DNA of 64,000 nucleotides from Mesostigma viride (taxonomy: Eukaryota > Streptophyta > Mesostigmatophyceae > Mesostigmatales > Mesostigmataceae): positions 300,181 to 364,180 of the forward strand of contig RPFO01000085.1 of assembly GCA_009746045.1 (NCBI GenBank), in the 5' to 3' direction. Numbering within the stretch: position 1 is the stretch's first letter; each line of letters starts with the position of its first letter. The notes below the pieces were generated by a model. The model saw nothing but the letters and a program-made list of their open reading frames with translations. It was not told the DNA's origin and ran no database searches. A program made the position numbers and the translations under genes. Shown here piece by piece: positions 13,781-40,015 of the stretch.

Positions 13781-15816
13781 AAGGTAATCACGTATGGTGC
13801 GCTAGCAGAGCAACTGCACAAGGTTATGGGCCATGAGGCTGTGGCTGAAAGGCTAGCCAATAAAATTCAAGGCCATGATCTGGAACAGATGTGCAGGCAC
13901 GTACGTAAGCACTGTGAGCAATGTCAGCTATATGCTCCTAAGCCCAGGAAATGGCATGTGGCCACACCACCACTGGCTAGAGGCAAACTGGTTGGGGATG
14001 TTATACACGTGGTGAAGGACACGGTATACTACCTAGTCATAAAGGATGCCTGGTCAAGGTTTGTGGTAGTGGAGCCTCTGCCTGGAATGGATAAAGAGCA
14101 GCTGCACAGAGCTTTACAGATAGCCTTGGCACCTTTTCACCCCATTGAAAAAGTAATGCTGGATCAGCAGTTTCTCTGCATCCAGGACAGGAATGATCTG
14201 CCCAAGATAGAAGTGTCTGGGGCTCAAGATCATGAACGTCAGGGGTTGGTAGAACGTACCATGAGAGCCATCAGGGATGTGATAAGAAAAATGCCATCCA
14301 GGTTGGCTGACTCTGGTAGCTATGCTGACAGGGCATCTTGGGCAGCAGGGGTGACTACCCAGCTAAACGCCAAACCAATAATGTCCTCACCTTTTGGGGA
14401 AATCACCCCAACTGGCCTTCAGTCAGGCAGCTATGCTTCAGAGGTGCACACTCACTACAACACACAAAGGCAGCACTTAGCCAAGTTGCTGGCAAAGAAA
14501 GACAAAAATAATGCCAGGCCTGTGTTTGAAGTGGGGGACCATGTGTTGTTTTTCAGAGAGGGTGACAGAGGAAGAGCACACTCTGCCAGATGGCACGGTC
14601 CAGCTGTAGTCACTAAGATTCATGAAGGGACTGCAGTCACTATACAACATGACAGAGAGCGTGTGGTCAGCAAGCATAGACTCAAGCTTTATTACCCACC
14701 ACTGGCAGACGTGTCAGGGGTAGAATTCTTGGACATGGATTCAGAGCAGGAGTCTGGTGGATTGATCTCACCCAATGAATTGGCTAGGGACGCCATTGAT
14801 GCAAGCACTAGTACCACAGTAGAAGCTCCTGTATTCCTCAGTAGTGCAGCCCCACTACAACCCAATAGTCCACCTGGGCAGGAGGACGGTGCACAGGGTG
14901 AGCAGCAGGTAGCCCCTCCCTCACACCTGGAGGAGTCACAAGATAGAGCAGATCCTGTCGTTCCCAGGAAGTCATTTGCTGAGATTCTTAAGGCCTTGCA
15001 CAAGGCACACAACACTAAAGCAGTTGTGGCAACAGGTACAGCACAGGTCAATGCTGTAGGGGATGCAGGTCAAGATCCTAGTATTTTGGCTGTAGACACC
15101 GAAGCACAGGTGAGTATCATCAGTGCAGCAGCTGTATCTGGTCTGAAAATGAAGGCCTCACCATGGGCTAGAGTGTCAGATTTTTCAGGCAAAACAAAAA
15201 TGCAGGTCAAAGGTCAGGTGAGCATTCAAATCTTGGGTATGCCCACTCCATTTCAGGTGGTTGAGGGTTACTCAGGGAATGCCCTGTTAGGGGAACCTTT
15301 TGTATCTTACCCTGGTGTTGTCATCTCAGCTGGGAGGTTGAGTGTGGCAGGGGTAGGACAGGTACCTCTAGATCATTTTAAAATCCCTGTGAGCCAGATT
15401 AGCACTGGGTTGGATGCTGCCATCAATGCAGTTAAGCCCAAGTACCTCCCAGGTCAGGAACCATGTGTGGAGGACCTCATGCACTCTCAAAAGCTACACC
15501 CTTCAGCGTTTGGGCTTGGTAGATGGGATGTTGCATCCATGTCTCCCCTGTCCTATGATGATATTGTACGGGACTGCCAGACGCAGATTGGTTTTCTTAA
15601 GTGGCTGGAGGCTTTTACCAAAGCCAGGGAGGAGTGGGTTGTTCCAGATGCACGTAGTCCCACTCATACACCACCTGTGACTCCTCTTGATGCTATGCCA
15701 GCTGGAGCCAAGAAGCTAAGGTTAAAGTTTGTGTGCAAGCATAAACCTCATTCTGATGGGGGACCACCCATTTTCCATGCTAGGCCATGTGTCACTGAGT
15801 TCAGGGGCTCTACAGA
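13781..15816 (+). pseudogene. Copia element 0 pol, first part: integrase, protease-like domain, start of RT
   Basis: The frame is open throughout. The integrase zinc site is H-K-V-M-G-H (13816-13833) with CEQC about 30 residues later. The catalytic D, D, E lie at GDVIHVV (about 13996), LDQQFL (about 14161) and GLVERTMRAI (about 14250). A Pro/Ser/Gln-rich linker follows. At 15092-15118 VDTEAQVSI matches a retropepsin active site (normally DTGA), with the second hydrophobic-Gly motif at NALLGEPF (about 15280). The start of the RT (KLRLKFVCKHK) follows and breaks off at 15816, where element 1 is inserted. Copia normally has the protease before integrase. Confidence 0.75.
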
Positions 15817-16444
15817 AGTTAATATTGCCTGGCAAGCAATATTATTCTACTAAGCTACTTGGCTTGTAGAGATTCTACTTCCGGTTACTACAATCCAGAA
15901 ACGGGTTCATTCTGATGAGTATTGCTCGAGATGTGAGCAAGATACTGTTCTACTACATTCTACTTGGATTCAGTGATTCTACGGTGGTTCTTCAAGTGAC
16001 GCGTGGCATACGACGTCTTGTCACAGTGTACGATAGGACATTTAGTCTCCGACACTGCGGTCTATTCAATGCTATTGATTAGACGTAACAAATAGTGACA
16101 GGACTTGTGCGACAGGACACTGATGTGACTATTTATGGATAACGAGTCGAGATCTGCTGGTCCAGAGTGAAGGACAGCAATATTGTGAGATGATCTGTCC
16201 TATCAGTCATCTGGATGTGACTGCGTCACAATTAGTATATAACGAGCAGGACGCTGCCACTTGGTAGCACCACTTTCCCTGCACCTGTGTCCTCGCACCT
16301 TCGGCGACGGTTCTCACGTGCCTCGTGCGTTCTGTGCTGGTAGCCATAACCAGCAACGTAAACCTATTGATTAATATAACTACTTCCTCTGTAGATATTA
16401 ATCAGTGCAGGCTGAACCACAGTTCAGCCACAGTTTCGTTAACT
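15817..16444 (+). repeat. 5' LTR of element 1
   Basis: It starts AGTTAATATTGCC and ends CGTTAACT, with a TATATAAC TATA-like box at about 16237. The sequence right behind it, CGAATTACAAGCGAG, is the candidate primer-binding site. It is not the common initiator-Met type. Confidence 0.93.
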
Positions 16445-16525
16445 CGAATTACAAGCGAGTTCGTAATCTACTGATTACGGCATTGATTTCTGGTGTCGGC
16501 AATTTTTACGGTGTTTTTCCATTAT

Positions 16526-17089
16526 ATGGGAAACACGCGTGAATATCGTGAGCCATCTCCCGAGCGTGCGTCGGCTCCATCGTCTTCAGGTTTTAATTTC
16601 AACGTTCAACGTACGGCGTCAACTGCTGCGCTGCATTCGCGTGCTGTTCAACCTTCGCTGTCTCAAGCGCTCGTCAGCCGGCCGCCAGTTTCTAACGATC
16701 TGCATCAGTTCGTCGACGACCTTACTCAAGATTTGGAAATCCTGTCGGAAAATTCCCATATTTTCCGAAGGCTTGCAGCTTCGGGATCAGACGAGCAAGC
16801 TCAAGTAATTTCGGCGCTTCGCACCTACGGCTTGGGTGTTCTGGCGTTGGCGACAGCGTGGTCTGGAATTTCGGCGACTCTTCCGGCTGTCGCAGTTCCG
16901 GTTAGCAACAACGGGTGGGCGTCGTCAGTCGACGGTATCATAAACGTCGCTGCTTCGATTCAGCGGCAATCAAACGCTGAGGAGCCAGGTGAAAACAGCG
17001 AGGGGCTTCCTGATTTATATCCGAGTATTGTGCAGCAGATTTTGGATAACGTATTGCAGTTTCCGCGCGACGATATGCGGCTGGATTAA
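16526..17089 (+). CDS. ORF0 of copia element 1, upstream of gag
   Basis: This is a 187-residue protein from the ATG at 16526 (MGNTREYREPSPERA), separated from gag by about 150 bp. The N terminus is Ser/Ala-rich. A helical region follows with PPVSNDLHQFVDDLTQDLEI, and then a hydrophobic alternating segment (LGVLALATAWSGISATLPA). The QFVDD segment has a close match, RPPTDRNFAQFVDDQVEDWE, in the ORF behind LTR B at 25.7 kb. A third, diverged ORF lies in the same place in element 2 (41427-42137). Ordinary copia elements have no such ORF. The function is unknown; it may be a structural or regulatory co-factor made from a spliced or bicistronic RNA. Confidence 0.6.
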   Translation: MGNTREYREPSPERASAPSSSGFNFNVQRTASTAALHSRAVQPSLSQALVSRPPVSNDLHQFVDDLTQDLEILSENSHIFRRLAASGSDEQAQVISALRTYGLGVLALATAWSGISATLPAVAVPVSNNGWASSVDGIINVAASIQRQSNAEEPGENSEGLPDLYPSIVQQILDNVLQFPRDDMRLD

Positions 17090-17239
17090 ATTTTCTGTTA
17101 TAATTAACAGAGAATTAATTCAGGAAAATTTTTTTCTTGGTTCCAGAGCTTAAGGGATTAATTTATTAATTCCCCAGCAGTATTCTTTCTTCAGCATCGG
17201 CATCGGCATCGACAGTTGTCATCGGCATTCGCAGCGACC

Positions 17240-18315
17240 ATGCAGGGTTTGGAAGACGGCGAGATACGCGGCGAACAAATGCTGCGGGGTCAGAATTTTA
17301 ATCAGAATTTTAATCGTCCAGCAGCAGCAGAGCAGCCCCGCAGAGCCAAGGCCCAGGAGGGCTTTGCTATTCTTAACCAGCTTCCCAGTCTCAAGGAGCA
17401 CTGGACTGTTAAGGATAAGGATATTACCATTAGGCACCTTAAGGGATATAAGGGCTTGTATAATGGTAACAATCCTCTGCAGGTGCTGTGTATGTCACAG
17501 TACCTTCTTAAGTGTCCCAAGAGGGTGCAGAAGTATGTAAATGACAAGTTTGAGGATGGAGATTCCTGGGATGTTTTTATAGCTGAGTTTGAGGTGTTCC
17601 TAGATGATAAGAGGGCTAGTGATGGCTCCTTTTGGAAGAAGGAGTACATTGATTTCAAGGCTGAGGGTCTGATTCTGCAGGCATTTGAGGATTTTCAGGA
17701 GCTCAGGCACAATTGTGCTGGCAAGGGGTATGTAGTGTCAGATGAGATTGCCATGGATGATTTCCTAGGTAGCCTGGGATTGGATGAGGTCACCTTGGAT
17801 AACCTGCAGGTGCACATGCGTACATGCACCACCTGGGCTGCTATGGTGGCCAAGATCAAGGATTATTTCAGGGGCAAGTATGTGGGAGGCAAGAAGGAGG
17901 CAGACAAGGCCAGGGAGAAGCAGAAGGAGAAGGATAAGGTGGATGTGGCAGCTGCAGCAGGGGGCAGTGTTCCCAAGGTCAAGGGCAACCAATGGGGGGG
18001 GCAGCCCTCCAACGGTTATGGTCCACCAAGGTCAGGGCCTTCCAAGCGGGGGGCTTCCAGGCCAAGGGCTTCAGTGGCTTCAAGCGTCGTGGAGGTCCTT
18101 CCCAGGAGCAGCCAGCGGCTCAGCGTCCCAGATTTGATTTCAACAGGGTGGGGTCCCAGCGGGGACCACCTGGGGTGGGGACACCTCGTATCACATGTTA
18201 TTTCTGTCACCAGCAGGGCCACATCCGTAAGGACTGCCCTAGCTGGCGTAAGCAAAGGGGCCAAGGGGGTATAACAACCCAACCTGACAGGCTCAGCCTT
18301 CCCTGGGCTTGCTAG
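17240..18315 (+). CDS. Gag of copia element 1
   Basis: From the ATG at 17240 (MQGLEDGEIRGEQMLRG) the frame covers a capsid-like helical region (SLKEHWTVKDKDITIRHLKG through FRGKYVGGKK) and a Lys/Glu-rich stretch. A Gly-rich segment over G-runs at about 17990-18060 is where a -1 change is needed to reach the zinc knuckle CYFCHQQGHIRKDC (about 18197-18238) and the stop at 18313-18315. The polypurine runs could be real slippage sites or indels. Gag is the particle protein that binds the RNA through the knuckle. Pol overlaps its end in the -1 frame. Confidence 0.75.
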
Positions 18316-21300
18316 GGTCCGCCAGGGAGGGGGCTAAGAGTGACCCCCCCATTACTCTGGATGAAGTTGATTTGCTCCCTGCACAGGTTGAGAGTCTCCC
18401 GCTTAAGGTTGAGAGTCCCCCTGCACAGGTTGAGGGTGCATCCATGGAGGAAGAACACAATGGGGTAGTGACTGGGTCTTCCCACGTCACCATGGTGAAA
18501 GCAGTTACCACAAGGCAACAACGTTCCCACATGGCTCTTGGAGGTAGTTTGCGTACTCCTTCAATGTTGGAGCGTGGAAGTCCTGCCTTAGGGCAGGAAG
18601 CTCCTTTAGAGGAGGAGGATGAGGCTGATGGCCTGAATGATGCAATGGGGAGCTTGGTTGTAAGAGAGAGTGCTGTTCCAAGCACCTCACCTGTATTTAA
18701 TAAAATGTCTCTTGTGTCAAACATTGCATTGAGATTGCATCATATGTTTGGTCATGCTGCCCAGGCACTCCAGTTTGCAAGGAGGCTGGGAGGGACATCT
18801 TTGTTTAATGCAGTAAAGCAGGTTGCTGAGGCTTGTTCCTGTAGGCTGGTTGCTCCCAAGCCTAAGAAGTCTCATGTCAGACAACCTGTGTTGCAGCCTG
18901 GATATGTACAATGTGATATCCAAGAAATCAGGAAACTGATTTTGTTGGTGGGTGTTGACAGATACACCAAGTACAAGGTGCTGGAGCTGTTGCAAGACAA
19001 ATCTAAGCCATGTTTGGTGGCTGGGCTCCAGGCTATCAGATCCAGAATGAAACCAGTGATCCAGCTGCAGTGTGATTTAGAATTTGAGTGCTGCATGGGG
19101 CATGAAGACCTCCCTGAGTTATTTGTTGTACACAGGGAGTCCCATGGCAGTCAAGGCGTGGTGGAGAGGACAATCAGAGAGCTCAAGACTATTCTGCTGA
19201 CGGAGAAGAAGATTCCAAGATTGGTTCCAGCTATTATCAAGACGGCCTGGTTAAGGTCAGTTGAGGACAGATTGAATGTCAGGGCACCCATGTATGTTGG
19301 AGAGGTCCCTGTGACTCCATTATCATTGCATCTTCGGGAGCTCCCTACTGAGGTTGAGCAAGCCTGGAAAGATAGCCTTATGTTCAAGTTTGCCAAGTTG
19401 AGGCAGAAAGACAAGGGCTGGAGTGTTCTGAAACCTGTTGTTGGCCAGAGGGTAATTGTGTGGAAAGAGCCCAAGCTTGCAGGCAAGCGTGGTAGCTGGC
19501 ACCCTGGAGTAGTGACCAGGGTGGAACTAGCTGGGCACAAGTGCTGGGTGAAGATGGAGGATCCTCCCCAGAATGTGCACCGTCTGTCGTGGTCATATGT
19601 ACGTCTAAGGGGTGCTGAAGCAGAGGCAGTAACTCCTGATGTGACAACCTTGCCAGTTGGTCATGACGTCATCCCTGATCATCACGTTCCGGCTGGAAGT
19701 AATCCCCGGGTAAGTCCTGGCCAGACCCCTGGACCGGTTAACTTTCCAGATTTAGAGCAGGCAGATGTGGTCCCCTCTAGCCTCACTAAGCATAGAGGTG
19801 TGGGCCTGAAAGATGTGGTGCTGGCTATGCAAAAAGCCAAGCAAAAGCCTCGGGTGTCCAAGCTCAGCCAGTTGGGGGAGTCCGAGTGCACTGCACTAGA
19901 AGTAGATACCAATGCAGAGGTCTCAATCATGGGGTCTCAGCATACAGGGCAGCGGCAGATTGGCGAGTCTAGCTGTTCCTGGGTGTCTGACTTTAGTGGC
20001 AGGGTTCATATGAAAGTGGTAGGAGAAATCATCTTACCATTTATGGGTGTAGATGTTTCCTTCCTAGTGCTAGAAGATTACGATGGCCCTATCATTTTGG
20101 GTCAGAATTTTCTTTGCACCCCTGGAGTTGTGGTTGTATCTCATAGCCTTATTCGTAAGGGTTGGGGTAGCATTCCACTGACTAACTTCAGGGCCCTGAA
20201 TCTTAATTTTTTCTCTGTGAAAGCGATCAGGAATGTGCAGTGGCCTGAGGATCAGATTCCTGTGGCTTCCAGTCTTGTGATGCCAGCTGCTCTTCATCCT
20301 AGCAGTATTGGTATTACTAAGAGATCACTGGCTGCTCATTCTCCTCTTAGCTATGATCAGCTTGTCCAGGAAATGAGTTCTCCTCTGATGTTTGAGGCCT
20401 GGAGGCTAGCATTTGCCAAGGCCCTAGAGGAGTGGTTGCAGTTTGACTGCTGTCAGCCTGTGAATGAAGTTCCTCCATACAGTACACGGTTGAAGCTCAG
20501 ATTCGTCATCAAGCGGAAGGAGGTGGAGGGGGTGTCTGTTCCCCATGTGCGTCCAGTTCTTAATGAATACCGTGGTACTGGGGATCTTCTGGGCGAGGAG
20601 TTGTATACACCTGGGATGCTACATGATACATGGCGTATTTTATTGTGCCTGTATGTCGGTATGCTGAACCAGGGTGCTGATGTGTCTTCAGTTCTGCTAG
20701 ATTTCAAGAGAGCATTTCTGAAGGGTGATCCCAGTGTGGCTCAGCAGGTGTGGCATTGTGAAACTCCATTTCATGTGCCAGTTCCTGTAGCCTGGCAGGC
20801 AGAGCTCCAGTCTAGCTACCTGCTGATTCTGAAGGGTCTAGAAGGTCTCAGGTCCAGTCCCATCATTTGGAGGCTCACCTTGGAAGACTTCTTGACTAAA
20901 CACTGTGGGTTGAAGGTGTCATCTGTGGACCCATGTTTATTGCTGGGTAGGTGGCATGATTTACCTGTGTATGCTAGCCTGCATGGTGATGACTTGCACT
21001 TGATTGCTCCCACTAAGTGGTTGAGTCAGTTTGTGCCCATCATTAATGATGCATTTCCTTTGGGAAAAGAATTGTGGCAGAAGCCTGGAGAGGCTGTCAC
21101 GTTCTGTGGAATGCAGGCTACATTGGTTCAGGAGGGGAGTCAGTGGCTGATTAAGCTGCAGGCGGGCAATGACTACAAGAGTACCATTCTTCAATCTGTT
21201 CCAGAGGTCATGACGTCATCCATTGCACCTGAGCTGAAAGGCAAGTTGGCCTGGTATGGCAGCATTTGTGGGCCTGACATGATGGTCCATAGCAGATCCC

Positions 21301-21881
21301 CTGATGATGTGCTAATTCTGGAGGAGCCTTCCCAGATTATTGCACATGTTAACAAGTCTCCTGGTATTACTTTAGCTGGGATAGATTTGTCTTTGCCATT
21401 TTCCTTGGATATCTATGTTGATAGCTCCATGGATAGCAGGCAAGTTTCTAAGGTCAGAGGCAGGTCAGCTGGCTTGTTTGTGCTTCAGCAACATAGGCCT
21501 AGTCTTGTGGCCTGGTACAGTCGTCTTCAAAGAAGGGTTGCTGTGAGTTCAGATGTCTCTGAGTGCAGAGCCATTTGTGAAGGGATTCAGTCTAGTTTGT
21601 ACATCAAGGAGCTGTTGCTAGCTATGGCTTCAGTGACTCCTCATACTCTTCAGCTGGAAACCTTGATCCTTTCAGATAACATGGGTATGGTCCAGTTTGT
21701 GCACAAGCAGTTGGCCAGAAGCAGAGATCTGGATTATCTCCTGTTGAAGGAGTTGGCAGGTCTGGTGGATATTCAACATCTTCCAGGTTCTGAGAATCCT
21801 GCTGATGCCTTGACCAAGTTGCCTCACAAGTCTGCTGAGCAATATAAGCTTCTTTACAAGCTGATGAGCTCCTCTGTGTGA
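18284..21881 (+). CDS. Pol of copia element 1: integrase, protease-like, RT, RNase H
   Basis: The frame is intact for about 1190 residues and open from 18284, overlapping gag by about 30 bp in the -1 frame, so it is probably made by frameshifting. Domains (residues counted from 18309): integrase zinc site HHMFGH at 144 with CSC at 176; catalytic D at about 203, D at about 257 (QCDLEFE), E at about 286 (VVERTIREL); protease-like VDTNAEVSIM at about 532 with ILGQNFL at about 596; RT with LLDFKRAFLKGD at about 797 and HGDD at 892-895; RNase H with YVDSSMDSRQ (about 1035), SSDVSECRA and ADALTK (about 1165). Two features are unusual: the protease lies after integrase, and HGDD replaces YVDD. Confidence 0.9.
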
Positions 21882-22657
21882 GTTGAGCAATTCCAGTTGG
21901 AGCTTTGAGCTTGATGACTGATTGGGTGAGAAGAGCTAACATAGAGCTGGGCTCTGTTATGCTGAGAGCTGTGTTGCTCTGAGGGCAGTAATGCTCTGTG
22001 TACATATGTGTATAATACTGTATTCTATGTAATGCTCAGTCATGGAGCATGATGTTGGTTGGGGGTTTGTCCTCAGTTTGAGGTTTGTCTCAACCAAAGG
22101 GATTTTATAGGGCAGGGTTCGATTCCCTGGGGCTGCTTAGGCGGATTTTCCCGGATTGGCTGACCCATCAACCTTGCTGGTGAGGTGGCGACAGGTCCCC
22201 CTAGTTTTGTCCCAGACAGAGGAAGGTAGTTTGTCATGTGCTTAATATATTTTGTGATGTGCTATTTCTCAGTCCATGGTGGGCGCCAGTTCTGATAACT
22301 ATCAATGTCTACCTGATAAGGTCTTGTGGGTAACTTGTGGGGTTCCAATCAGGAGCCATTATGGTGGTGATTCCATTTTGGTCATTATTCTGGTTAGCCA
22401 CAAGCTGCTACTCCAAACACTTGGCTTTCTACTTCCAGTGGATAGGGAATTCATTGTAATTCGTCATGGCTGAGATGTGTTGTGATCTGGTGCTTGATTA
22501 ATCCCGAGCAGAGACTACAGAGAGCTGGGAGGGATGTCAAGTGCTATGCATGTTGTTTCTATATATGTGTTGCCAAGCCTAACAGCTCTAAAAGAAAGAA
22601 AGGGCTGGAGTTAATATGGCTGTTATGTCCAAGCTCTAAAAGAGAAGAAAGGGCTGG
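21882..22657 (+). other. 3' untranslated region of element 1
   Basis: This stretch of about 775 bp has no ORF of note. It contains the T-arm-like hairpin at 22113-22129 and, just before the LTR, a duplicated polypurine tract (AAAGAAAGGGCTGGAGTTAAT at about 22590 and 22645). Confidence 0.7.
22104..22130 (+). ncRNA. Conserved tRNA T-arm-like hairpin in the element 1 3' region
   Basis: CAGGG-TTCGATT-CCCTG (22113-22129) is a 5-bp stem with the canonical 7-nt T loop, preceded by TTTATAGGGC. The block recurs in element 2 (minus strand, 36256-36231) with one change, although the surrounding 3' regions differ. No acceptor, D or anticodon arm is visible, so it is not a tRNA gene. It could be a Pol III B box, a structural RNA signal or a SINE remnant. 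Confidence 0.55.
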
Positions 22658-23285
22658 AGTTAATATTGCCTGGCAAGCAATATTATTCTACTAAGCTACT
22701 TGGCTTGTAGAGATTCTACTTCCGGTTACTACAATCCAGAAACGGGTTCATTCTGATGAGTATTGCTCGAGATGTGAGCAAGATACTGTTCTACTACATT
22801 CTACTTGGATTCAGTGATTCTACGGTGGTTCTTCAAGTGACGCGTGGCATACGACGTCTTGTCACAGTGTACGATAGGACATTTAGTCTCCGACACTGCG
22901 GTCTATTCAATGCTATTGATTAGACGTAACAAATAGTGACAGGACTTGTGCGACAGGACACTGATGTGACTATTTATGGATAACGAGTCGAGATCTGCTG
23001 GTCCAGAGTGAAGGACAGCAATATTGTGAGATGATCTGTCCTATCAGTCATCTGGATGTGACTGCGTCACAATTAGTATATAACGAGCAGGACGCTGCCA
23101 CTTGGTAGCACCACTTTCCCTGCACCTGTGTCCTCGCACCTTCGGCGACGGTTCTCACGTGCCTCGTGCGTTCTGTGCTGGTAGCCATAACCAGCAACGT
23201 AAACCTATTGATTAATATAACTACTTCCTCTGTAGATATTAATCAGTGCAGGCTGAACCACAGTTCAGCCACAGTTACGTTAACT
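22658..23285 (+). repeat. 3' LTR of element 1
   Basis: It is colinear and almost identical with 15817-16444, and is preceded by the polypurine tract GAAGAAAGGGCTGG. The target duplication ACAGA follows at 23286-23290. Confidence 0.93.
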
Positions 23286-24759
23286 ACAGAGCTGACAGAG
23301 GCTGAGCTTTATACTCCTGGTATTCAGCAAACGTCTCTCAAGGTGTTGCTTTCCTTGTTTTTGCATCAGCTTAATACAGGGAAGGATTATGTGTGTAAAG
23401 CCACAGATATCAAAAGAGCCTTTCTAAAGGGGGACCCTGCCATAGCACAGCAGGTCTGGAGAGGTCAGGTATACGTGGTGAATACTCCTAAGGTGTGGCA
23501 CAGGGATATTGTACAACCCTTGTTGAGGCCAAACCTGGGGGTTGAAGGGTTGCAGTCAGCTCCAAAAATTTTTAGGCTGTCTGCACAGGAGGTATTCATG
23601 AAGCTAGCCTGGGGCCACCTATGATGACATTGACCCTTGCTTGTTTGTCATCCCACCCCCTGATGGAATGATGATGTTTGTCTGGCATGGGGATGATCAG
23701 TTAATCTCAGGTCCTAGAGCTGCAGCGGATGCTTTCATAGCTCAGGTGTCTGCTAGTTTTGACTGAGATTGGCAAGCAGCTAGAGCTGGGCAAGGAGCCA
23801 GTCAAGTTCTGTGGCATGATGCTTGAGTTGCTGCAGCATGCAGCAGGGCAGCTGGGTTTGTTCCATGCAGGCCTCTGCTGAGTACATTAAGTCTTGTCTG
23901 GATGTCCTGCCTGTTCACATCACCCCTGACATGTGCCCTACCATTAGAGGCAAGCTTGGTTGGCTATGTGCTACATGTGCACCCCACCTGTCTTTTGTGA
24001 GCAGGGTAGATGATGAGGTACTAGAGGAGGTAGGAGCACGGGCAATCAAGCAGTTATTGCATGATGCTCCACCTTTGATGCTTCACTCACTGGATCTGTT
24101 TACTCCCATTCACATCACGTGCATGATGGATAGTTCAATGGAGTCCAGGGTAGTTACCAAGGTTTAAGCCAGAGAGGCTGGATTGTTTTTCCTGCATAAC
24201 CAATTAAGGTGGGAAGAAGTCACTAGTCTCCTGGTTCAGTAGATTGCACAAGAGGAAAGCTGTGAGTAGCAATGTTGCTGAATGCAGGGCTGTGGTATCT
24301 TCTGTTTCGCATGCAAGGTATCTCAATCACTTGCTGGTCTGGCTTCAACACCAGGCTGGTAGCTCTGCAGGAGTGAAAGCACATTTGCTGACTGACTCTC
24401 AATCTATCATCTCTTTCCTTGCCAATCCTTTGGCTGTTCACTCGGACCTGGATTGGATTGTGCTGAAACAGGAATGCAAGTACCTGGAGTCTAAAGCCCA
24501 CGTCAGGGACAAAGACAATGCTGCAGATGCACTGACCAAGGTGCCACAAGCAGCAGGACCACAATTATTACCAGGTCTTGTATGGGTTGATGAACCCTGG
24601 TTACAGTCTGAAGTGACTGGCACATTGTACATGTTAGCCCATGACCCCCTGCCTCATACTGCAGCTGAAAGGCTGCAGTGGCAGCTGGGTAGTTTTCTGA
24701 CAGTGAGAAGCACTGGTCTAGAAAGTTGGGACATGATGAATGTGTTATTTATTGAATAA
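23286..24759 (+). pseudogene. Copia element 0 pol, second part: RT and RNase H
   Basis: It resumes exactly where 15816 stopped: ACAGA, then GCTGACAGAGGCTGAG, reading LTEAELYTPGIQQTSLKVLL. The RT core IKRAFLKGDPAIAQQVW lies at about 23410-23460. After a frameshift near 23615, FVWHGDDQLISGP carries HGDD at 23686-23697. Further frameshifts lie near 23765 and 23850. RNase H follows, with KAVSSNVAECRA at about 24255, LLTDSQSIISF at about 24390 and ADALTK near 24530, and the frame ends at 24759. The element is inactive. Confidence 0.8.
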
Positions 24760-25547: not shown

Positions 25548-25556
25548 CAAATTACA

Positions 25557-30243: not shown

Positions 30244-30289
30244 CCCATGACACCCTAACTCCTTTTAGTAATGAAATGACAATAACTGT

Positions 30290-30436: not shown

Positions 30437-30462
30437 GCTGTAGCGTTTTTCATACAGAATTA

Positions 30463-30998
30463 TCAGAACTGGGCAGCAATAACATGATTTGCATCACAAG
30501 GAGGAATTAAGGGAAGAACAAGAGCATGTCTTACAGTACTCCGTCCGCTTACCGATCGACCTGCTTTTTGCCCGTGGCATCCATCACGTGCTTGCCGGTT
30601 CAGACTGCACGTCTTGCCTAACAAGTAGGCGTCTACATCGCCCAGGCCAGACCCTTCTAGTCTGGCCTGCTCGCCGGCTAGGAGGGCCATGTCCTCAGCT
30701 TCCTCTTTGTCATCGTCTTTATCCTCATCACAGGCGGCTTCAGTGGGGCCCGCCGGCTGTGGCTTGTCCTGTTTGTTAGTCTCGCCCCCCTGTTGGCATT
30801 TCGTGCAGATCCTGACTTGGCCATACCCCTTCTCCCTGGGGTATGCCACAAATCCCGTGCAATGATCCACACGCCGCATGTGCACTTATGGGCAGCTCCT
30901 GTCAACCGAGGGCAACCCCCACATAATTGCAGGGGAATGTCCTCCATGGAAGCTAGCGTCCGCGATGCCTGTCGTGTGTGCGCCTGTGCAGTGCCCAT
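30463..30998 (-). pseudogene. Cys/His-rich zinc-binding ORF, frameshifted
   Basis: One minus frame reads MEDIPLQLCGGCPRLTGAAH and KCTCG; after a 1-nt shift near 30870 the other continues HCTGFVAYPREKGYGQVRIC-TKC, then an acidic stretch (ACDEDKDDDKEEAEDMALLA) to the stop near 30463. The C-x2-C ... H-x-C-x-C ... HC ... C-x2-C pattern looks like a compact zinc-binding fold; I cannot name the family. The shift could also be a missed intron. The position next to a hairpin element suggests a transposon remnant. Confidence 0.35.
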
Positions 30999-32540
30999 TG
31001 CTGTCTATAGCCGTGTCGAAATTTAACCCATAGTCCGGGAATGGGTTTTTGGCATTTTTTGACCCCTGAAAATGAAAAAAATCATAGCTCATAGACCACA
31101 ACTCCAAATACCCCCAACCAAGGTGCTAGGAATATCTACACTTCAAGGGCTTTCAGAATATGCAATAATATTATGAGTTTATATAGTAGTTTGCAAGATA
31201 TTTAATGTCAAACTTCGCCAAAAGACGATCATTTTCAGGCAAGGGAAATCCCCTTAGTAGTTTACCCCTGCAGGGAGGGTTCTAAAAAATTATTCTGGGG
31301 TTGGACAATGTCAATAGATAGTGCCACCATGCTTTCCTTGGGTCAGACCGCACGGATAGCCCATCTGACCTATATAATGCGCTCACTTACGTGTGTGGGT
31401 TACGCGCGCGTAAGCAGCCATCCATGAAATGCCACACAGTTATGCATTGTATACAGCCACATAGGACTGTCAAAAGTGCTGGGAAACAAAGAAGTGCTAA
31501 ACCAGCACTAACGGAATGGCATCCTCCAAAGAAACACCACAAACTGAGCAGATTTGGGGCTAATAGCACTCATACAGCAGGCATGGAAACCTGCTGCAAG
31601 AGGCACTGATGGCACTCGTGTAAAATCGATGCATAAACGACAGATTCGGCCGTGCAAACGACATGCAAACACGTCGCCGTACCTGGCTTGGTCACGACCT
31701 TTCCGGGTTCTGCTGGCCGGGACCCTCATATCTCACACTGGCTAATGCTTTCCAGGCATAGGCCGCCATAGCCGCATAGTGAATGCATCGGACATGATTA
31801 CCAGGTTGATGTTCTGTGCAAAGATTACCTATAAACGCATCCGAATTCACAGGGACGCTGCTGCGGATGTCCCGTACCAAAACTGGGTGCTCGGGCTGGC
31901 GCAGACTGCCGGGCCATAAGAAGAAAATCGAAATATGGCATCATTGCCATTACTCATCTGGTACTGACGACCAAGAAAGCAGTAATTTCCTACCTGTATT
32001 TTACCAATGCCATCCCATCTGGCCAGCCCTGACCTACGAAAATCACGCATCATCATTCTGAGCAACATTCTGAACCATTGCAAGCCTCGAGACGCAAAAT
32101 TTCCTTGATAACGGCACGCTAGCAGCCATATCTCGTTACGCACGCGCGCGAGTGAAAATTTCCCGCCAAAGTCACGTGATACTGTCTCAATACACGTTGT
32201 ATTTACCAGGCTATGGCGAATATTACCCCCAAACCTATGCATCACCTTCGTCCTTAAGTGTTCCCAGACCCACCGGACCACTGACATCCGTCACAGGTGG
32301 CGCGGCGCTCCGGGAATTGAGCGCCGCGCCACCGCCGGGGGGTCAAACATATCGAACTGTTTCCGGACTAAGGGTTAAATGACGCGCGCGTCTCTGGCTG
32401 TGTGCGCCTGGTAGCCGGTAGGGCTTGCAGACACGGTGCAGTGGCGCCGCGCTGCGTACTTTATGGCTTGGGCCAACGCTAGCCGTGGCTATAGCCAGGT
32501 CGTAGCCCAGCCATTTTCTGTATAGCGCCAATGTCCAAGT
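30999..32540. other. Intergenic stretch without recognised features
   Basis: No ORF above background, no transposon end and no RNA gene was seen. There is a small hairpin, GCGGCGCTCCGGGAATTGAGCGCCGC, at about 32300-32325. Confidence 0.4.
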
Positions 32541-32559
32541 CCAGGTCGATCATCTATGC

Positions 32560-33085
32560 TACAGAGAGGCTACCGGTATGCGCTATAGCCAGTCTACCGA
32601 CCAGGCTCAGTAGCCTGCTGTTGCCCAAGCCATTTTCCCTGGTTATTGTACGGTGCTGAGCTATGATTGGGCTACGAACGGTTACAAAAGAGGTGGCAGC
32701 TTAGCTATACGATATATTGGGCTACGAACGGTTACAATGTTCAGGTCTCTAGTGTAACCGTTCGTAGCCCAATCATAGCTCAGCACCTCTTTTGTAACCG
32801 CTCGTAGCCGGGCTATAGCCAGGCTACCGACCAGGCTATAGTCTGCTCTTGCCCAAGCCATTTTCCCTGGTTATTGTACGGTGCTGAGCTACGATTGGGC
32901 TACGAACGCTTACACTAGAGACCTGAACATTGTAACCGTTCGTAGCCCAATCGTAGCTAAGCACCTCTTTTGTAACCGTTCGTAGCCCAATCCTACAGTG
33001 TAGCTCAGCACCGTACAATAACCAGGGAAATGGCTTGGGCAACAGCAGGCTATAGCCTGGTCGGTAGCCTGGTTCTCTTGCGGCT
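32560..33085. mobile_element. Inverted-repeat mosaic element (MITE-like)
   Basis: A long arm (about 32608-32665: GCTGTTGCCCAAGCC, CCCTGGTTATTGTACGGTGC, TGAGCT) is repeated in reverse complement at about 33001-33050, and a third copy lies in the middle (32843-32890). Between them GGGCTACGAACGGTTACA occurs about eight times in both orientations. Flanking ACCGACCAGGCT motifs are also inverted. No ORF is present. It looks like a MITE that has been rearranged or has inserted into itself. Confidence 0.65.
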
Positions 33086-33099
33086 ACAGAATGGGCTAC

Positions 33100-33617
33100 G
33101 AGCCTGCAACCTGGAGTTAGATGAGATGCTTAGGCTGACACACGGATTTCCGGCCTGCGCGCCGCGTATTGCCTACCGCGGCTGAGCGGGACACCTCAGT
33201 ACTGTACGGCAGGGCGTACGGTACTGAGGCGTCAGGTGGACTGACGTGCAGTTAGTGCCATGCAGACTGTTCCTAGGCGCTAGTTCGACCCGCCAGATCC
33301 GGTGTAGCCGGGTCTGACGGGCCGAGTGTTAGCTGGTTGCTAGTGACGTGGTCGCATGGCATTGCAGTGTCCAGTTGTCCACTGGCAGGTGCTGCAGTGA
33401 GCACTGCCATAGGCATATAGGCGTATAGCACTGCATGGGGAGTGCCGCAGCACACGAGTTTGCCCAGTTCCATTCTGAGCCCTCAAGCTTTCACTACATT
33501 CCTTGTATTATTGCTAATACAATCGTCATTCTCATTTCCAGCTTTCGTCAGTTGTCCTTCGTCTCTAGACGCATTCCAACTTGGACTGAAACAGGTTTTT
33601 TTTCCTTTTTGAAAAAA
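33100..33617 (+). other. Leader or LTR-like region before element 3
   Basis: The stretch contains a hairpin, CCTCAGTACTGTACG / CGTACGGTACTGAGG (33193-33230), and a C/T-rich, A-rich leader up to the ATG at 33618. It could be the truncated LTR of element 3, but no second copy lies in the window to test this. Confidence 0.35.
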
Positions 33618-34951
33618 ATGGCTTCAAACAACAACAACGGAAAGGACAACAACAACACGGGGAAGGCGCCTATCAGGCGCACATCCCCCCGCCTCTCGCC
33701 GGAGGGCTCGCCCTCCGCCACCGTGCCCCCGAGGGTGACGCCCAACGTCACCTTCAGCACGGTGGTCGCCGATCACCCACGGCGTCGGACCCCGCAGGTG
33801 GGGGCCGGCGCCTGGGGGCTGGTGAGAGGACGCTCGTTTGCCACTGGCGGCTCGGCCGCCATGGCACCCGGGGGGCAGGACCCCCGGGCATGTGACACCC
33901 CCATCGCAGGTGATGGGGGTCGTGAACGCAGCGATTCCTCGGAAGAGGACGGGGAGGTGCCGCCCGCAAGGCCGCGGCCCTCGATAGAGCTTTCTTCCCA
34001 GACGCCGGCGACGTCTGGCAACTTATCGGTGGGCCGCCAAATGGCCATCCTGGACATTGATCGATATGGTGCGCATCTTCCGCCGCCCGTCGAGTTCGGG
34101 CGCCAGCCGTATCTTCTCCCCATCGGGGAAGATGACATTCCAGCGTTCATCTCCGTGAATGGCTGGATCATTCGTCAGCGGTTTCAGTTGACCGTCGACG
34201 AGCAGACGCACGCGATCGATGTTCATCGGGTTCAAGCAATGATCGAGCATCGCTTGCGGATGCAGTTCAAACTGATCCAGGTGGCGGTCTGGATGTGGTG
34301 CTTTGCCAACCAGCCGAGGCACAATCCGGGCACGGTGGATCAGTGGGCCTCCATGCAGGCAGCGTCAACGAGATGCGCTGCGCGTGGTGGCCAAGCAGGA
34401 GATCGAGCTGACCCCGTTGCCAGCGTGGCCCCCAGTCACGCCAGTTGGCTGGGGCGATGAGAGGCGCGAGGCGGCTGCGATGCCGCCTGCGACGGAGCGC
34501 GGGGCGGCAGTCGCCCCTATCACACCAATGGGTGGTGTAACCACCCAGGACCCTCTGGCATGCAGGGCAGAGGGTCCAGCCTCCGCAGCCTGCTCCCCCG
34601 CCCAGCGCGGGGGGCCAGGTGGCTGAGGAGGCCACCGGGGTTGCAGGGACCCCGGCGGCGACGCCAGCTCCCGGGGTTGCAGGGACCCCGGCAGCGCCCC
34701 CGGCGCCTCCGGCGCCAGCGGGGGAGGAAACTCCTATGGAGGGTGTCACTGGCACCTCCAGCGGCTCTGGGGGGCAGGCCCCCGCCAGACGCCCCAGGGA
34801 CAAGGCCTTGGCAGGGCCGGGCGGACCCGAGGGTCCCACCATGGCGGGGCAGCAGCCGGCAGTGCTGGAGGGTGATCTGGAAGGTCGTGACTTCATCACC
34901 CTGGGGGATGAGCTTGTGTGGCGCGGGGCCATTCAGGCTGCCACAGCCTCC
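33618..34951 (+). pseudogene. ORF0 of copia element 3, split by element 2
   Basis: From the ATG at 33618 (MASNNNNGKDNNNTGKAPIR) the frame covers a long disordered Pro/Arg/Ser-rich part and a compact segment (YGAHLPPPVEFGRQPYLLP ... GWIIRQRFQLTVDEQ ... MQFKLIQVAVWMWCFANQPR). A frameshift near 34365 moves it to EIELTPLPAWPPVTPVGWGD. A further shift near 34620 leads to the Pro/Ala repeats and GRDFITLGDELVWRGAIQ, which stops being readable at 34951, where element 2 is inserted. It continues at 42784. No known domain is recognised. Its place upstream of gag fits the ORF0 seen in the other elements. Confidence 0.5.
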
Positions 34952-35580
34952 AGTTGTAATACGAGTTGTGAGGGTAAGAATGCCACGAATTCCGCCATGG
35001 TTCTTGCAGGAAGTTGCCTTTATTAACAATCAGGAAACACAGACGTAAGTCACGTCACTTCCAAGACTGCACGCAGCACAGACGACAGGGTCGCAGTGCC
35101 AAGAGAACGTGCACGCAAGAACTAGCGTCCCGGTGTGACCAAGTCACTCATATAGCTTACTAGGGACGCGTCCAAGTATTCAGCTGCACTGTCACAGCTG
35201 AACTGTCAATCAATTGATTACACAGACTCTGGCACGCCTTTGGCGCGCAGATCTATCAATTGTCCATACGGCTAGTCCTGTGGACCTATCCGTACACTAG
35301 TCAGCATCAATTGTCTCATAGGTCCTGGCGCGCTACAGTGCGCCTACCTATCAATTGACCATCAAGTCCTGTACAAGTCCTGTCAACGTCCTGCGGACTA
35401 TCAAAGTGACACTTGTACATCCTGTGTCCGTACGCGCCCACAGTGGCGCGCCGGGTACTGTCGGCACAGCCTAGGAAACGTCATAACTTTTACGTTCCTT
35501 AACCAAATGAGGCGTTCAAGGTGCCGTTGGAAAGAGCGTAACAATCTCTATCCATCTAACGTAAATCCTTTACGTTAACT
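34952..35580 (-). repeat. 3' LTR of element 2
   Basis: Read on the minus strand it starts AGTTAACGTAAAGG and ends CTCGTATTACAACT. It matches the 5' LTR at about 42151-42778. The outermost bases differ from the 5' copy (ATTACAACT here, ATTACACGCT there). Confidence 0.92.
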
Positions 35581-36529
35581 CCAATCCCTTCTTTTCTTTA
35601 GGGGTCACATCCCCTGCCAGGGACCCTTGAAGTAGCTTGAAATGTCCTTCACTCCAGCTTGAAGCTTGAACAGATGTCTTTAATGGCCAATGCCATTCCC
35701 CCAGCCCTTTCTTTTAAGGAACTGGAAAAGAAACAGATCTGCCACAGGGAAAACCATTTCATGAGAAATGGAGAAAACCTATGGAAGTGGCATTACAGAG
35801 TACCACCAGATATTAGAAGCACACAAAATTAAATACATACAGGTTAATTCTATGAGGTCTTCTCCAGGAATTAATCCCATCACCTCGGTAGAGCCTCCAG
35901 TACAATGACCTTCTGGCGGTGAGTTACATTAATCCCAGATACTAATCCCATAAAACCCAGTACATATTCAATATAAGTACAATAAATCCATGACAATTAA
36001 AATACCACTTGACAAAGTAAGGCGTATTACAATAGTTTGCCTGTCATTCTCTCAACAGGGGTCTATTGGCGCCCGTCTTACGGCGCCCGTCTACTTGCCA
36101 GATGGTAAACTGCCACAGCAAACAAATGACAAAATGAAACACATAGGCAACAATTAAATCCTGCCCTGGGGAACTAGGGAAGTCTGAACAGGCAAACACC
36201 TGAACAGGCCAGCTTGTAGAAACATAATACCAGGGAATCGAACCCCGCCCTATAAACCCCAGAATAAAGGTTCCCAGACCATTGTGAGAAGTATGTACAA
36301 ATATACATTTCTTTTAAAATAGAATACATGGTCTGTAATGGACCTGTCAACCTTGTGTAGTCAACAGCATGAACCCCAGCCAAAACCTGGCTGTATCCTG
36401 ATTAAAATCAGAGTGAGTGTACCATGGTCCATGAGCCTTAGTACAGACTAAAATACAGGTATTATGCCAGTCACAATGCTGACACTACCACACAATCTGC
36501 TCTCCAATGCCCTATAACCATGCACCAGC
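35581..36529 (-). other. 3' untranslated region of element 2
   Basis: About 950 bp lie between the pol stop and the 3' LTR. It contains the conserved T-arm-like block at 36231-36256 and ends in the polypurine tract (36-nt region next to 35581). No ORF is present. Confidence 0.7.
36231..36256 (-). ncRNA. Conserved tRNA T-arm-like hairpin in the element 2 3' region
   Basis: On the minus strand TTTATAGGGC is followed by CGGGG-TTCGATT-CCCTG (36247-36231), a T-arm stem with one G-T pair and the canonical loop. It is the counterpart of 22104-22130 in element 1, with the same distance order: pol, hairpin, polypurine tract, LTR. Confidence 0.55.
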
Positions 36530-39500
36530 TTAGACAGCTTGCTGAGATGGGTCCATCAGAGACTGAAGAACCTTGTATTGCACTGCTGCCTTCTGCACTA
36601 GCTTGGTCAAAGCATCAGCAGGATTGTCAACCCCAGGGATATGCTCAATATTGGCCAAGGAGGACAACTCCTTAAGAAGGAGATAATCCAAGTCCCTACT
36701 TCTGGCCATCTGCCTGTGCACAAACTGCACCATCCCCATGGAGTCTGTTTTTAGAAGAGTGGTAACCTGAAGTGGCCAAGGAGTGTTAGAAGTCATCTGA
36801 TGAAGCAACTCCTTCAGATAAAGGCTTGTGTGAATGCCTTCACAAATAGCCCTGCATTCTGCCACATCACTGCTGACAGCCACCCGTTTGTGCAGGCGAC
36901 TAAACCAGCTCACCAAACTCCCCAGGCCTTCCTGTCTGAGCACAAAGAGCCCTGCAGCCCTGCCCCTGACCTTGGAGACCTGCCTGCTGTCCATTGAGCT
37001 ATCCACATACAGCTCCATGCAAATGGGTTGTGATAAATCCACTGCAGACAACAGAATGCCAGATGAAGCCCTGACCTGATCAGCCACCTTGGCAGACCCT
37101 AGCTCCACCAGCATGTCATCAGGCAACCTGGCTATGACCATAAGGTCTGGCCTGGAAATGCCTGCCACCCAAGCAACCATGCCCCTCACCATGGGACACA
37201 GTGCCTGTGTGATGGTTGGAGGAAGCTTGCTAATGAGGGTCTCTTGATAGTCATTGCCCCCCACCAGCAGCATACGCCACTCCCCTCCCTTCTTCACCAG
37301 TGTGGCCTCCATGCCCACAAACAGCAGAGGCTCATTCTCCACCTGCCATTGCTCCCTACCCAGAGGAAACTTGGACTTAATGATGGTGATCAGCTCCTTA
37401 AGCCACGACGTGGGAGCTATCAGATGTAGGTCATCCCCGTGCAGCGAAGCATACACTGGCAGGCCTTCCCATTGCCCCAGAAACAGACAGGGGTCTACAG
37501 GAGAGACCTTCAAGTTGCAATGCTCCTTCAGGAAACGGTTGAGAGTCTCCCTCCAGATTATTGGACTTGACCTCAGGCCCTCCAGGCCCTTGAGGATTTT
37601 AAGGAACTCCGTGTGGATGTCCCTTTTCCATACAGCAGGCACCCTAACATAGAAAGGCGTCTTGCCCTCCCACTTTTCCTGTGCCACATCTGCATCACCC
37701 TCCAGAAATGCCCTCTTGAAGTCTATCACCACTGAGCCATAGTCCAAGCCCTTGTTGAGAAGGCCTAGAAAGACACACAGCAGCAGCCTCCAAGTATCAT
37801 GCAGCATGCCAGGGGTATACAACTCCTCAGCAGTGCACTCACCAGTACCCTTGAACTCATTCAGCACTGGCCTGACATGTGGTACCTTGACCCCGTCCAC
37901 CTCCTTCATCTTGATGACAAACTTGAGCTTGAGTAGACGTCGTGCAGGAGGCAGGTCATTGACAGGTTCCACGCATTTCTTGGAGATCCAGTCCTCCCCA
38001 GATTTAATCAGACCCAGTGTGACCTGGGGACACATAATGGGAGAGGACATGAGCTTCACCAGGCCTTGGTAGTTGATAGGGCTGTGTCCAGCAAGTGAGT
38101 GAGGACCAATGCCCAAACTGCTTGGATGACTAGCAGCTGGCAGTATGAGGTCATCAACCAAGGGCTCCTGCCCCTGGCACACTTGCACACGCTTAACCGT
38201 CCTGGTTACTGCACGTGATAGGTGAGTGGTCCTGAAATTAATCAGTGGGACCTGACCAGCCCCTTCCTTAGTCAGGAGAGAGGACGTGATCACTACCCCA
38301 TCCTGGCATAGGAAATTCTGCCCCAGAAGAGCAGGTCCTTGATAGCCCTCCAAGACACAAAAAGCAGTGTCCTGTCCAAGGATAGGAATGAATACCTCAC
38401 CCAGTACCTTCACGTGTACCCCGCCACTGAAGTCAGACACAAACTGATAGCTGGGTTCAGACATGCTGTACCCTGCTGCAGCCCTGGTCCCAATAATGGA
38501 GACCTGAGAATTAGTGTCTACCTCTAAGGCAGTGTCCAGCCCCAGATTGCCATGCCACCTGAGCTTGGCTACCTTGGGCTGCTTCTTGGCCCTTTGTAGA
38601 GCCCCAATCAATCCAGCCAAACTTGTCCCCCTGGGCTTGGTTAGTGCCTTGGGCTTGACAGTTGACTCCCCAGCTGTTGACCTTGCAGCCTGTTCAACAA
38701 GTACCTCTGCAACCTGGCCAGGGCTGACAGATTCCCCTGCAACAGATGTGGTCGTTGCGTCAGTGATGTCACCTGGGACCTGAAAATCCTGCAGATCCTG
38801 TGAGCCTTGTGCCTGACTGCCCTCATTCATCAGGTTAGGCTTGACATATGACCAACTCAGCCGGTGTACATGCTTTGGTTCGTCCTCCATGCTGACCAAG
38901 CATGCGTGGCTAGCTTCATCAACCTGGGTAACCACCCCAGGACTCCAGCTACCACGTTTGCCATAAAGGCTAGGTTCCTTCCAAGCTAGGACCTTCTGAC
39001 CCACTTGTGGCTCCAGCATCTTCCAACCCCGGTCCTTCTCCCTCAGCTTGGCAAAGGTGACATGTGCAGCATGTTTCCAGCCCTCCAGCACATGTGGTGG
39101 GCACAGGCCATGATATAGACCCATTGGGCTGACAGCAACTCCATCATAGTAGAAGTTAACCCTGCTGTTCAGCTGCTGCTCCACGTTCCTCAGCCATGCA
39201 CTCCTGACAAGTGCAGGTGCAGACAAGGGTACCCAGTCTTCAGAGATGATCAATTTCTTGACCTCCTGGATTGCCCTCTCGATAGCACCCTGCTGCCCAT
39301 GAGCCTCCCTAGGTGTAACCAGCAACTCAGGAAGGGTAGGATCACCCTTGAGATGCTGAAACTGCATGTCCACCTGGATCCTTGTGGTAGGAAACTTGGC
39401 TCTTACATTCTGCAGGGCAGCCAGCAAGTACCTGTTCTTCATAGAAGGTAAATGCTCCAGCACCTTGTATTTCGTGTACCTGTCCACGCACACCAACAGT

Positions 39501-40015
39501 TGCATGCCCCTGATGTGTTGGATATCACACTGCAGATCACCAATGCTCTGAGGTAGAGCTTTGGCATGTGATTTCCTGGGCTTGTTGGAGGACAACTGGC
39601 ACTTACACCGTGAGGCAGCTTGCTGACACGCCTTAAGAAGGGGTGCCCTGCCCATACGGAAGGCAAAGTTGTTTGACAGAGAAGTGGCATGCCCAAACAT
39701 GTTGTGGATTCGGGCACCCAACTCCTGGTACACAGAGGAAGCAGTCCCTGGCACAGTCAGGACTGTGCTGTCAGGTTGTCCAGCATCACCATGCTGACTT
39801 CCATCCTGTTCTGACTCAGAGCCTGAGTCACCCTGCTCATGCCCAACACCTGGACCGCCAGCAGGGACCACATGCATACCACCAGAGGCCTTCACACCCC
39901 TCTGTGGTTGTACATTGGTTTCTCTCAAAATGAGAGGTCCACCCTCGTGCCCAGCACGAGGATGCATAGGGTCAGACATACTTACAGCTGCATCAGCTGT
40001 CAAGGACGTCTTCAT
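36530..40015 (-). CDS. Pol of copia element 2: integrase, protease-like, RT, RNase H
   Basis: This is an intact frame of 1161 residues from the ATG at 40015. Integrase: HNMFGH at about residue 103 with CKC at about 136; D at about 163 (LQCDIQH), D at about 216 (VDMQFQH), E at about 246 (GAIERAIQEV). Protease-like: LEVDTNSQVSIIG with its Asp at residue 500 (38516-38518) and ALLGQNFL at about 563. RT: IDFKRAFLEGDADVAQ, then YASLHGDDLHLIAP with HGDD at residue 859 (37430-37441). RNase H: LYVDSSMDSRQ at about 1003, AVSSDVAECRAI, NPADALTKL near the end. The domain order and HGDD agree with element 1. No protease motif precedes integrase. Confidence 0.9.
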   Translation of the reverse strand: MKTSLTADAAVSMSDPMHPRAGHEGGPLILRETNVQPQRGVKASGGMHVVPAGGPGVGHEQGDSGSESEQDGSQHGDAGQPDSTVLTVPGTASSVYQELGARIHNMFGHATSLSNNFAFRMGRAPLLKACQQAASRCKCQLSSNKPRKSHAKALPQSIGDLQCDIQHIRGMQLLVCVDRYTKYKVLEHLPSMKNRYLLAALQNVRAKFPTTRIQVDMQFQHLKGDPTLPELLVTPREAHGQQGAIERAIQEVKKLIISEDWVPLSAPALVRSAWLRNVEQQLNSRVNFYYDGVAVSPMGLYHGLCPPHVLEGWKHAAHVTFAKLREKDRGWKMLEPQVGQKVLAWKEPSLYGKRGSWSPGVVTQVDEASHACLVSMEDEPKHVHRLSWSYVKPNLMNEGSQAQGSQDLQDFQVPGDITDATTTSVAGESVSPGQVAEVLVEQAARSTAGESTVKPKALTKPRGTSLAGLIGALQRAKKQPKVAKLRWHGNLGLDTALEVDTNSQVSIIGTRAAAGYSMSEPSYQFVSDFSGGVHVKVLGEVFIPILGQDTAFCVLEGYQGPALLGQNFLCQDGVVITSSLLTKEGAGQVPLINFRTTHLSRAVTRTVKRVQVCQGQEPLVDDLILPAASHPSSLGIGPHSLAGHSPINYQGLVKLMSSPIMCPQVTLGLIKSGEDWISKKCVEPVNDLPPARRLLKLKFVIKMKEVDGVKVPHVRPVLNEFKGTGECTAEELYTPGMLHDTWRLLLCVFLGLLNKGLDYGSVVIDFKRAFLEGDADVAQEKWEGKTPFYVRVPAVWKRDIHTEFLKILKGLEGLRSSPIIWRETLNRFLKEHCNLKVSPVDPCLFLGQWEGLPVYASLHGDDLHLIAPTSWLKELITIIKSKFPLGREQWQVENEPLLFVGMEATLVKKGGEWRMLLVGGNDYQETLISKLPPTITQALCPMVRGMVAWVAGISRPDLMVIARLPDDMLVELGSAKVADQVRASSGILLSAVDLSQPICMELYVDSSMDSRQVSKVRGRAAGLFVLRQEGLGSLVSWFSRLHKRVAVSSDVAECRAICEGIHTSLYLKELLHQMTSNTPWPLQVTTLLKTDSMGMVQFVHRQMARSRDLDYLLLKELSSLANIEHIPGVDNPADALTKLVQKAAVQYKVLQSLMDPSQQAV

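What the first reader, a model, noticed from the sequence alone, without database searches (positions are those of the whole stretch)
13781..40015. Copia elements with protease between integrase and reverse transcriptase
Seen: elements 0 (15092-15300), 1 (about 19860-20130) and 2 (about 38560-38310) each have VDT(N/E)(A/S)(E/Q)VSI followed 60-65 residues later by (I/L)LG(Q/E)xF, the two retropepsin signatures. In all three they lie after the integrase D,D,E and before the RT. Between the gag zinc knuckle and the integrase zinc site I find no DTG/DSG. Known: copia order is gag-PR-INT-RT-RH and gypsy is gag-PR-RT-RH-INT. Inference: a distinct lineage with order gag-INT-PR-RT-RH. The Gly of DTGA is replaced by Asn or Glu, so the domain may act differently or may no longer be a protease.
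Basis: partly seen in the sequence, partly recalled or inferred. Interest (0 to 1): 0.88.

Follow-up and report, generated by a model that had tools for sequence, protein, structure and literature searches.

The report
Retrotransposons with relocated, altered protease
Young jumping genes in the genome of a green alga (most likely Mesostigma viride) carry their protein-cutting domain in an unusual place, between integrase and reverse transcriptase, and lack a glycine at its active site that such proteases normally have, so either the cutting chemistry differs or the domain has taken on another job.

Summary

It is not simple decay. Between the deepest members the core is about as conserved as the RT. 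The element-2 family has 40 of 40 scored genomic places with pol open at about 100% identity; a distant family whose reference protein has DTQ has 11 nearly full-length, stop-free places among 45 matches. Host: almost certainly Mesostigma viride.

I found no paper describing the order gag-IN-PR-RT-RH in eight searches. Whether the Gly-less protease cuts or is now structural is undecided, about 50:40.

The parts
15817..16444 (+). Element 1, 5' LTR (AGTTAA...TTAACT ends); target-site duplication ACAGA on both sides; inserted in element 0's RT
   Evidence: 627 of 628 identical to the 3' LTR; flanks
22658..23285 (+). Element 1, 3' LTR
16526..17089 (+). Element 1, ORF0 of unknown function before gag
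   Evidence: open frame 16487-17089; no Pfam match at E <= 0.05
17240..18274 (+). Element 1, gag; its zinc knuckle CYFCHQQGHIRKDC (18196-18237) is in another frame
18288..21881 (+). Element 1, pol open frame: IN - PR - RT - RH
18738..19166 (+). Element 1, integrase zinc site to catalytic Glu (D 18915, D 19074, E 19164)
19866..20195 (+). Element 1, retropepsin-like core, D-T-N at 19905
   Evidence: fold of the aligned element-2 core
20700..20993 (+). Element 1, RT catalytic boxes (DFKRAF ... HGDD at 20982)
42153..42780 (-). Element 2, 5' LTR
   Evidence: 628 of 628 identical to the 3' LTR
34955..35582 (-). Element 2, 3' LTR
41427..42137 (-). Element 2, ORF0 of unknown function before gag
40157..41256 (-). 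Element 2, gag with zinc knuckle at 40312; frame broken in this copy; ends with an in-frame UGA directly before pol
   Evidence: (zf-CCHC E 0.0016, below cut-off)
36530..40156 (-). Element 2, pol open frame: IN - PR - RT - RH
   Evidence: 40 of 40 scored genomic places open
39278..39706 (-). Element 2, integrase zinc site to catalytic Glu (D 39526, D 39370, E 39280)
38228..38557 (-). Element 2, retropepsin-like core, D-T-N at 38518; the sequence modelled
   Evidence: pLDDT 87.4, pTM 0.80; fold matches
36619..37723 (-). Element 2, RT and RNase H motifs (DFKRAF 37723, HGDD 37441, RH D 37003, RH E 36859)
13580..15816 (+). Element 0, older and interrupted: IN (13997/14162/14252), PR core D-T-E at 15095, start of RT
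23286..24759 (+). Element 0, remainder of RT and RNase H in broken frames after element 1

Best explanation
These are LTR retrotransposons of a deep, divergent copia-RT lineage whose polyprotein order is gag - IN - PR - RT - RH. The PR is a retropepsin-fold domain of the ILG (gypsy/Ddi) type, lying before the RT, and no copia-type protease was found before the integrase. (Anatomy: about 0.9; shown by sequence and by predicted fold.) Its active-site loop reads D-T-[N/Q/E] instead of D-[T/S]-G. Most likely mechanism (inference, about 0.5): the domain still pairs into a homodimer with two catalytic aspartates and cuts a few sites in its own Pol, chiefly releasing the integrase, while PR-RT-RH stays joined, much as in foamy viruses. 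The polar residue at the Gly position and an invariant Asp-Phe in what I take to be the flap would belong to an altered substrate cleft. Gag is made apart from Pol: in the element-2 family an in-frame UGA separates them and Pol would need readthrough (sequence shown, readthrough inferred).
Against: The canonical Gly is lost in 8 of 8; in HIV-1 protease Gly27 is listed among the residues of the active-site cavity (PMC3185505, passage), so a side chain there may block substrate. No cleavage site, dimer or activity was tested. Sequence support for the protease is weak: P0002's own core matches no Pfam family, P0001's best Pfam match there is DUF6898, and the two top-ranked tethered-dimer entries match only outside the triad with no stretch passing alone. 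RVT_2 stays below its cut-off and is absent from P0008. Between nearer pairs the core is less conserved than the RT (P0001-P0002 53 against 63%, P0006-P0007 44 against 60%). Copies could be mobilised in trans: a canonical DTGA protease exists in the gypsy-like remnant at 53957. The foamy-virus comparison rests on the start of an abstract (PMC8402755).
Confidence: 0.6

Rival explanations
1. Pseudoprotease: the domain keeps the retropepsin fold but no longer cuts. It serves as a dimerisation or spacer module between IN and RT, and Gag and Pol are left uncut or are cut by a host or foreign protease.
For: Gly replaced in 8 of 8 members by three different residues, N, Q or E. A separate Gag, ended by a stop codon before Pol, lowers the need for Gag-Pol cleavage. 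A canonical DTGA protease remains in the same genome.
Against: Asp and Thr of the triad are 8 of 8 although only 14 columns of the 110-residue core are invariant; a dead protease need not keep the Asp.
Confidence: 0.4
3. A normal copia protease sits between gag and integrase and the domain after the integrase is an unrelated beta-barrel.
For: One DSG in that linker in element 2.
Against: That DSG is in a low-complexity stretch, absent from element 1. No protease model was reported there, and the post-integrase domain matches retropepsins by fold.
Confidence: 0.03

Closest known systems
Ty1/copia LTR retrotransposons (Pseudoviridae)
   Same: RT and RNase H colinear with a copia pol; IN before RT; LTRs; CCHC gag
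   Different: Protease after, not before, the integrase; [I/L]LG instead of the ILS said to be usual in copia proteases (PMC2642776, passage); HxDD instead of the YVDD of the copia pol compared; RVT_2 below cut-off
Ty3/gypsy elements, and the gypsy-like group with copia-like pol order (Goodwin and Poulter 2002; only its title seen, in a reference list)
   Same: Protease before RT; ILG-type protease
   Different: Integrase upstream of the protease; RT is copia-like. The 2002 group has, as I recall it, PR-IN-RT, not IN-PR-RT
Ddi1 / SASPase retropepsin-like proteases (clan AA)
   Different: Canonical Gly absent; part of a retroelement polyprotein
Foamy virus PR-RT
   Same: Protease joined to RT, Pol made apart from Gag (PMC8402755, start of abstract in a listing)
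   Different: RT family, place of the integrase and protease triad differ (recalled, not compared here)

Membership tests
Ty1/copia | copia-type RT (RVT_2) | tested here: met
   P0002 E 3.8e-6, P0009 2.3e-4, P0006 3.1e-4, P0007 0.0027, P0005 0.014, P0001 0.063, all below Pfam's cut-off; P0008 none; no RVT_1 listed; hhalign 5.4e-9 with a copia pol
Ty1/copia | Order gag-PR-IN-RT-RH | tested here: not met
   IN-PR-RT-RH in one frame in P0001, P0002, P0005, P0006; L029 and element 0 agree in part; P0007 and L015 do not reach into IN
Ty1/copia | Copia-type protease (ILS in place of ILG) | tested here: not met
   [I/L]LG in 8 of 8; trait from PMC2642776, which says 'usually'
Ty1/copia | LTRs with target-site duplication | tested here: met
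   Element 1: LTRs 627/628, ACAGA on both sides; element 2's duplication is uncertain
Ty3/gypsy | Order PR-RT-RH-IN | tested here: not met
   IN upstream of PR
Clan AA retropepsin | Retropepsin fold | tested here: met
   predicted fold
Clan AA retropepsin | D-[T/S]-G catalytic triad | tested here: not met
   D-T-[N4/Q3/E1], 8 of 8 without Gly
Clan AA retropepsin | Hydrophobic-hydrophobic-Gly motif | tested here: met
   LLG/ILG 8 of 8
Clan AA retropepsin | Proteolytic activity as a dimer | not testable with these tools
   no assay, no dimer prediction available

The most novel reading that the evidence does not exclude
An old retroelement lineage swapped its copia protease for an ILG-type retropepsin placed between integrase and RT, and rebuilt the active site: D-T-[N/Q/E] plus an invariant Asp-Phe in the flap form a working aspartic protease without the canonical Gly, together with an RT that uses HxDD. 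It is a new retropepsin subclass in a recently mobile element.
Probability: 0.35. Interest if true: 0.88.

Novelty: new variant of a known kind. Interest (0 to 1): 0.74.

Why it matters
Textbook classification of LTR elements rests on pol order (copia: PR-IN-RT; gypsy: PR-RT-IN). A third order, in elements that look recently mobile, shows that the protease can be moved or exchanged independently. Loss of the canonical active-site Gly in at least two families with near-identical copies makes a long-held rule of aspartic protease chemistry directly testable. It may also explain why annotation tools miss these elements: the RVT_2, rve, gag-asp_proteas and zf-CCHC scores shown for these elements all lie below Pfam's cut-offs.

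Tried and rejected
Decay and a hidden second protease were considered and rejected (see rivals). Scans of IMG/VR and of prokaryote genomes found no relative. A profile of PR-RT-RH against the PDB found nothing at E <= 1. The six-frame profile scan is circular for its five hits. The trees are not used: the RT tree has 8 rows with a very long copia branch; in the PR tree three rows with the same name merged, leaving six, and the merged row was mislabelled. An RT phylogeny with algal copia elements was not done: no reference set was at hand. Genome-wide counts of DTG against DT[NQE] were planned, but the tool did not complete, so 'never Gly' rests on 8 members, not on the genome. Paper searches for this order or such an element: (20 of 42 listed); nothing in the listings or passages seen describes it, which is not proof of absence.

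Full report
What was checked. The pol frames named in the finding are real: 18288-21881 (+) and 40156-36530 (-), both open from stop to stop, and element 0 is open from 13580 past the point where element 1 is inserted. Element 1 has LTRs 15817-16444 and 22658-23285 (627 of 628 identical) and a 5-base target duplication, ACAGA; it sits in the RT of element 0, whose coding continues after it. Element 2 has LTRs 42780-42153 and 35582-34955 (628 of 628). Its 5-base duplication (GGAGG) holds only if the 3' LTR ends in AACT, which the inner end of the 5' LTR lacks, so I count it as uncertain.

The domain. In P0001, P0002 and P0003 the motif V-D-T-[N/E]-[A/S]-[E/Q]-V-S-I is followed by [I/L]LG, 63 residues after the Asp. 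Relatives came from two sources: proteins P0005 (ENA, 1214 aa), P0006 and P0007 (Mesostigma viride gene models), with P0008 and P0009 (RT/RH pieces); and two loci of a 200-kb sample of the window's own genome taken at even steps on one contig (L015, L029). In the alignment of the 8 that hold the core, D and T are 8 of 8, LG is 8 of 8, and the position after D-T is N in 4, Q in 3, E in 1, G in none. The expression that found L015 and L029 left that position free; in window plus sample it returned six places, five of this lineage without Gly and one DTG, the gypsy-like remnant at 53957. That remnant lies behind a CCHC gag as in ordinary gypsy elements and serves as an internal contrast.

Order. 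IN, PR, RT and RH lie in one open frame in P0001, P0002, P0005 and P0006. L029 is open from within IN through PR to the start of RT, after which its RT continues in another frame. Element 0 shows IN, PR and the start of RT. P0007 and L015 do not extend into IN. The integrase D,D,E is present in elements 0, 1 and 2; the RT Asp and DD and the RNase H D and E in elements 1 and 2. No protease was found between gag and integrase: no protease family reported there (E <= 10), no profile hit, and a D[STV]G[ACSFT] scan finds only one such motif there in the pol frame, in a low-complexity linker of element 2.

Affiliation. RT and RNase H align with a copia pol from Lasius niger (hhalign probability 95.9, E 5.4e-9, 439 columns). 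RVT_2 is found in P0001, P0002, P0005, P0006, P0007 and P0009 at E 0.063 to 3.8e-6, never above the cut-off, and not in P0008. RVT_1 was not listed. By contrast the protease is ILG-type: a survey of clan AA states that copia proteases usually have ILS (PMC2642776, passage). So the protease may have been exchanged, not merely moved; this is inference.

Not decay. Identity in the PR core between the six deep pairs (P0001, P0002, P0005 against P0006, P0007) is 34-45%, in RT 33-39%, in the linker before the core 11-16%. Between nearer pairs the core is less conserved than RT (P0002-P0001 53 against 63, P0006-P0007 44 against 60). In the own genome 40 of 40 scored places (of 10071 first-look candidates; one is the window's own copy) hold the element-2 pol open over all 1161 residues at about 100%. 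In the 8 of these loci that were read, one being the window's, no base differs within the PR core. P0006 gives 45 matches, of which 10 cover residues 1-1157 and one 1-1150 without a stop at 100% (rounded); I did not read the triad in those copies. Thus two families 38% alike in RT, one with DTN and one whose reference protein has DTQ, look recently mobile. Mobility in trans is not excluded.

Gag. In element 2 an in-frame UGA (CAG UGA CUG) separates gag's last open frame from pol; the same context is in 8 of the 9 fetched loci L001-L009, of which L008 and L009 are one copy and L002 is the window's; L007 did not match the search string. The gag frame is broken in the window's copy; L009 shows gag open up to the UGA. 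Readthrough is inferred. In element 1 gag, zinc knuckle and pol lie in three different frames with overlaps; whether that is programmed or mutational I cannot say.

Host. P0006, a Mesostigma viride gene model, is found at 100% in the window's genome, as is 146 residues of P0009. That genome has 439.9 Mb against 441.8 Mb published for M. viride, in which LTR elements make up 27.9% (PMC6947507, passages). So the host is almost certainly M. viride.

Mechanism. Shown: place, conservation of the aspartate, absence of the Gly, near-identical copies; predicted: the fold. Inferred: dimer, cleavage, readthrough. In HIV-1 protease Gly27 is listed as lining the active-site cavity (PMC3185505, passage), and in Ddi1 proteins DT/SG is conserved with one exception at the S/T position (PMC6120238, passage). 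A side chain at that Gly might therefore narrow the cleft. Two readings remain: an altered but working protease (about 0.5) or a pseudoprotease kept for pairing or spacing (about 0.4). Foamy viruses, where PR stays joined to RT and Pol is made apart from Gag (PMC8402755, start of the abstract in the listing), are the nearest working analogy.

Limits. No activity test, no dimer model, no genome-wide count of the triad (tool down), no RT tree with algal references. The statement that the order is undescribed rests only on eight searches of one open-access library.

Noticed in passing
20982 (+), 37441 (-); P0005-P0009: The RT catalytic box is HxDD (HGDD, HADD, HVDD) instead of YxDD in 7 of 7 members that hold the region; the copia comparison protein has YVDD.
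   Followed up: partly
16526-17089 (+) and 42137-41427 (-): Both elements carry an extra open frame (ORF0) between the 5' LTR and gag, with no Pfam match at E <= 0.05.
   Followed up: partly
40157-40159 (-): A single in-frame UGA followed by C separates gag and pol in the element-2 family, the same in 8 of 9 fetched loci, two of which are one copy: possible stop-codon readthrough.
   Followed up: partly
LTR ends at 15817, 16444, 42780, 34955: LTRs start AGTTAA; element 1's end TTAACT, not TG...CA; the 3' end of element 2's LTR is uncertain. A primer binding site was not searched for.
   Followed up: no
51266-54491 (+): Gypsy-like remnant: CCHC gag, then a canonical VDTGA protease at 53957 with IIIGVDWL in a shifted frame.
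   Followed up: partly
58630-59899 and 62735-64000: Direct repeat of about 1.27 kb, 99.5% identical, with a part-copy at 55800-56342 (98%) and inverted relatives at 61533-62494 (about 71%).
   Followed up: no
integrase zinc site, about 39600 (-) and 18830 (+): The integrase zinc motif has C-x-C in P0001, P0002, P0005 but C-x2-C in P0003 and P0006.
   Followed up: no
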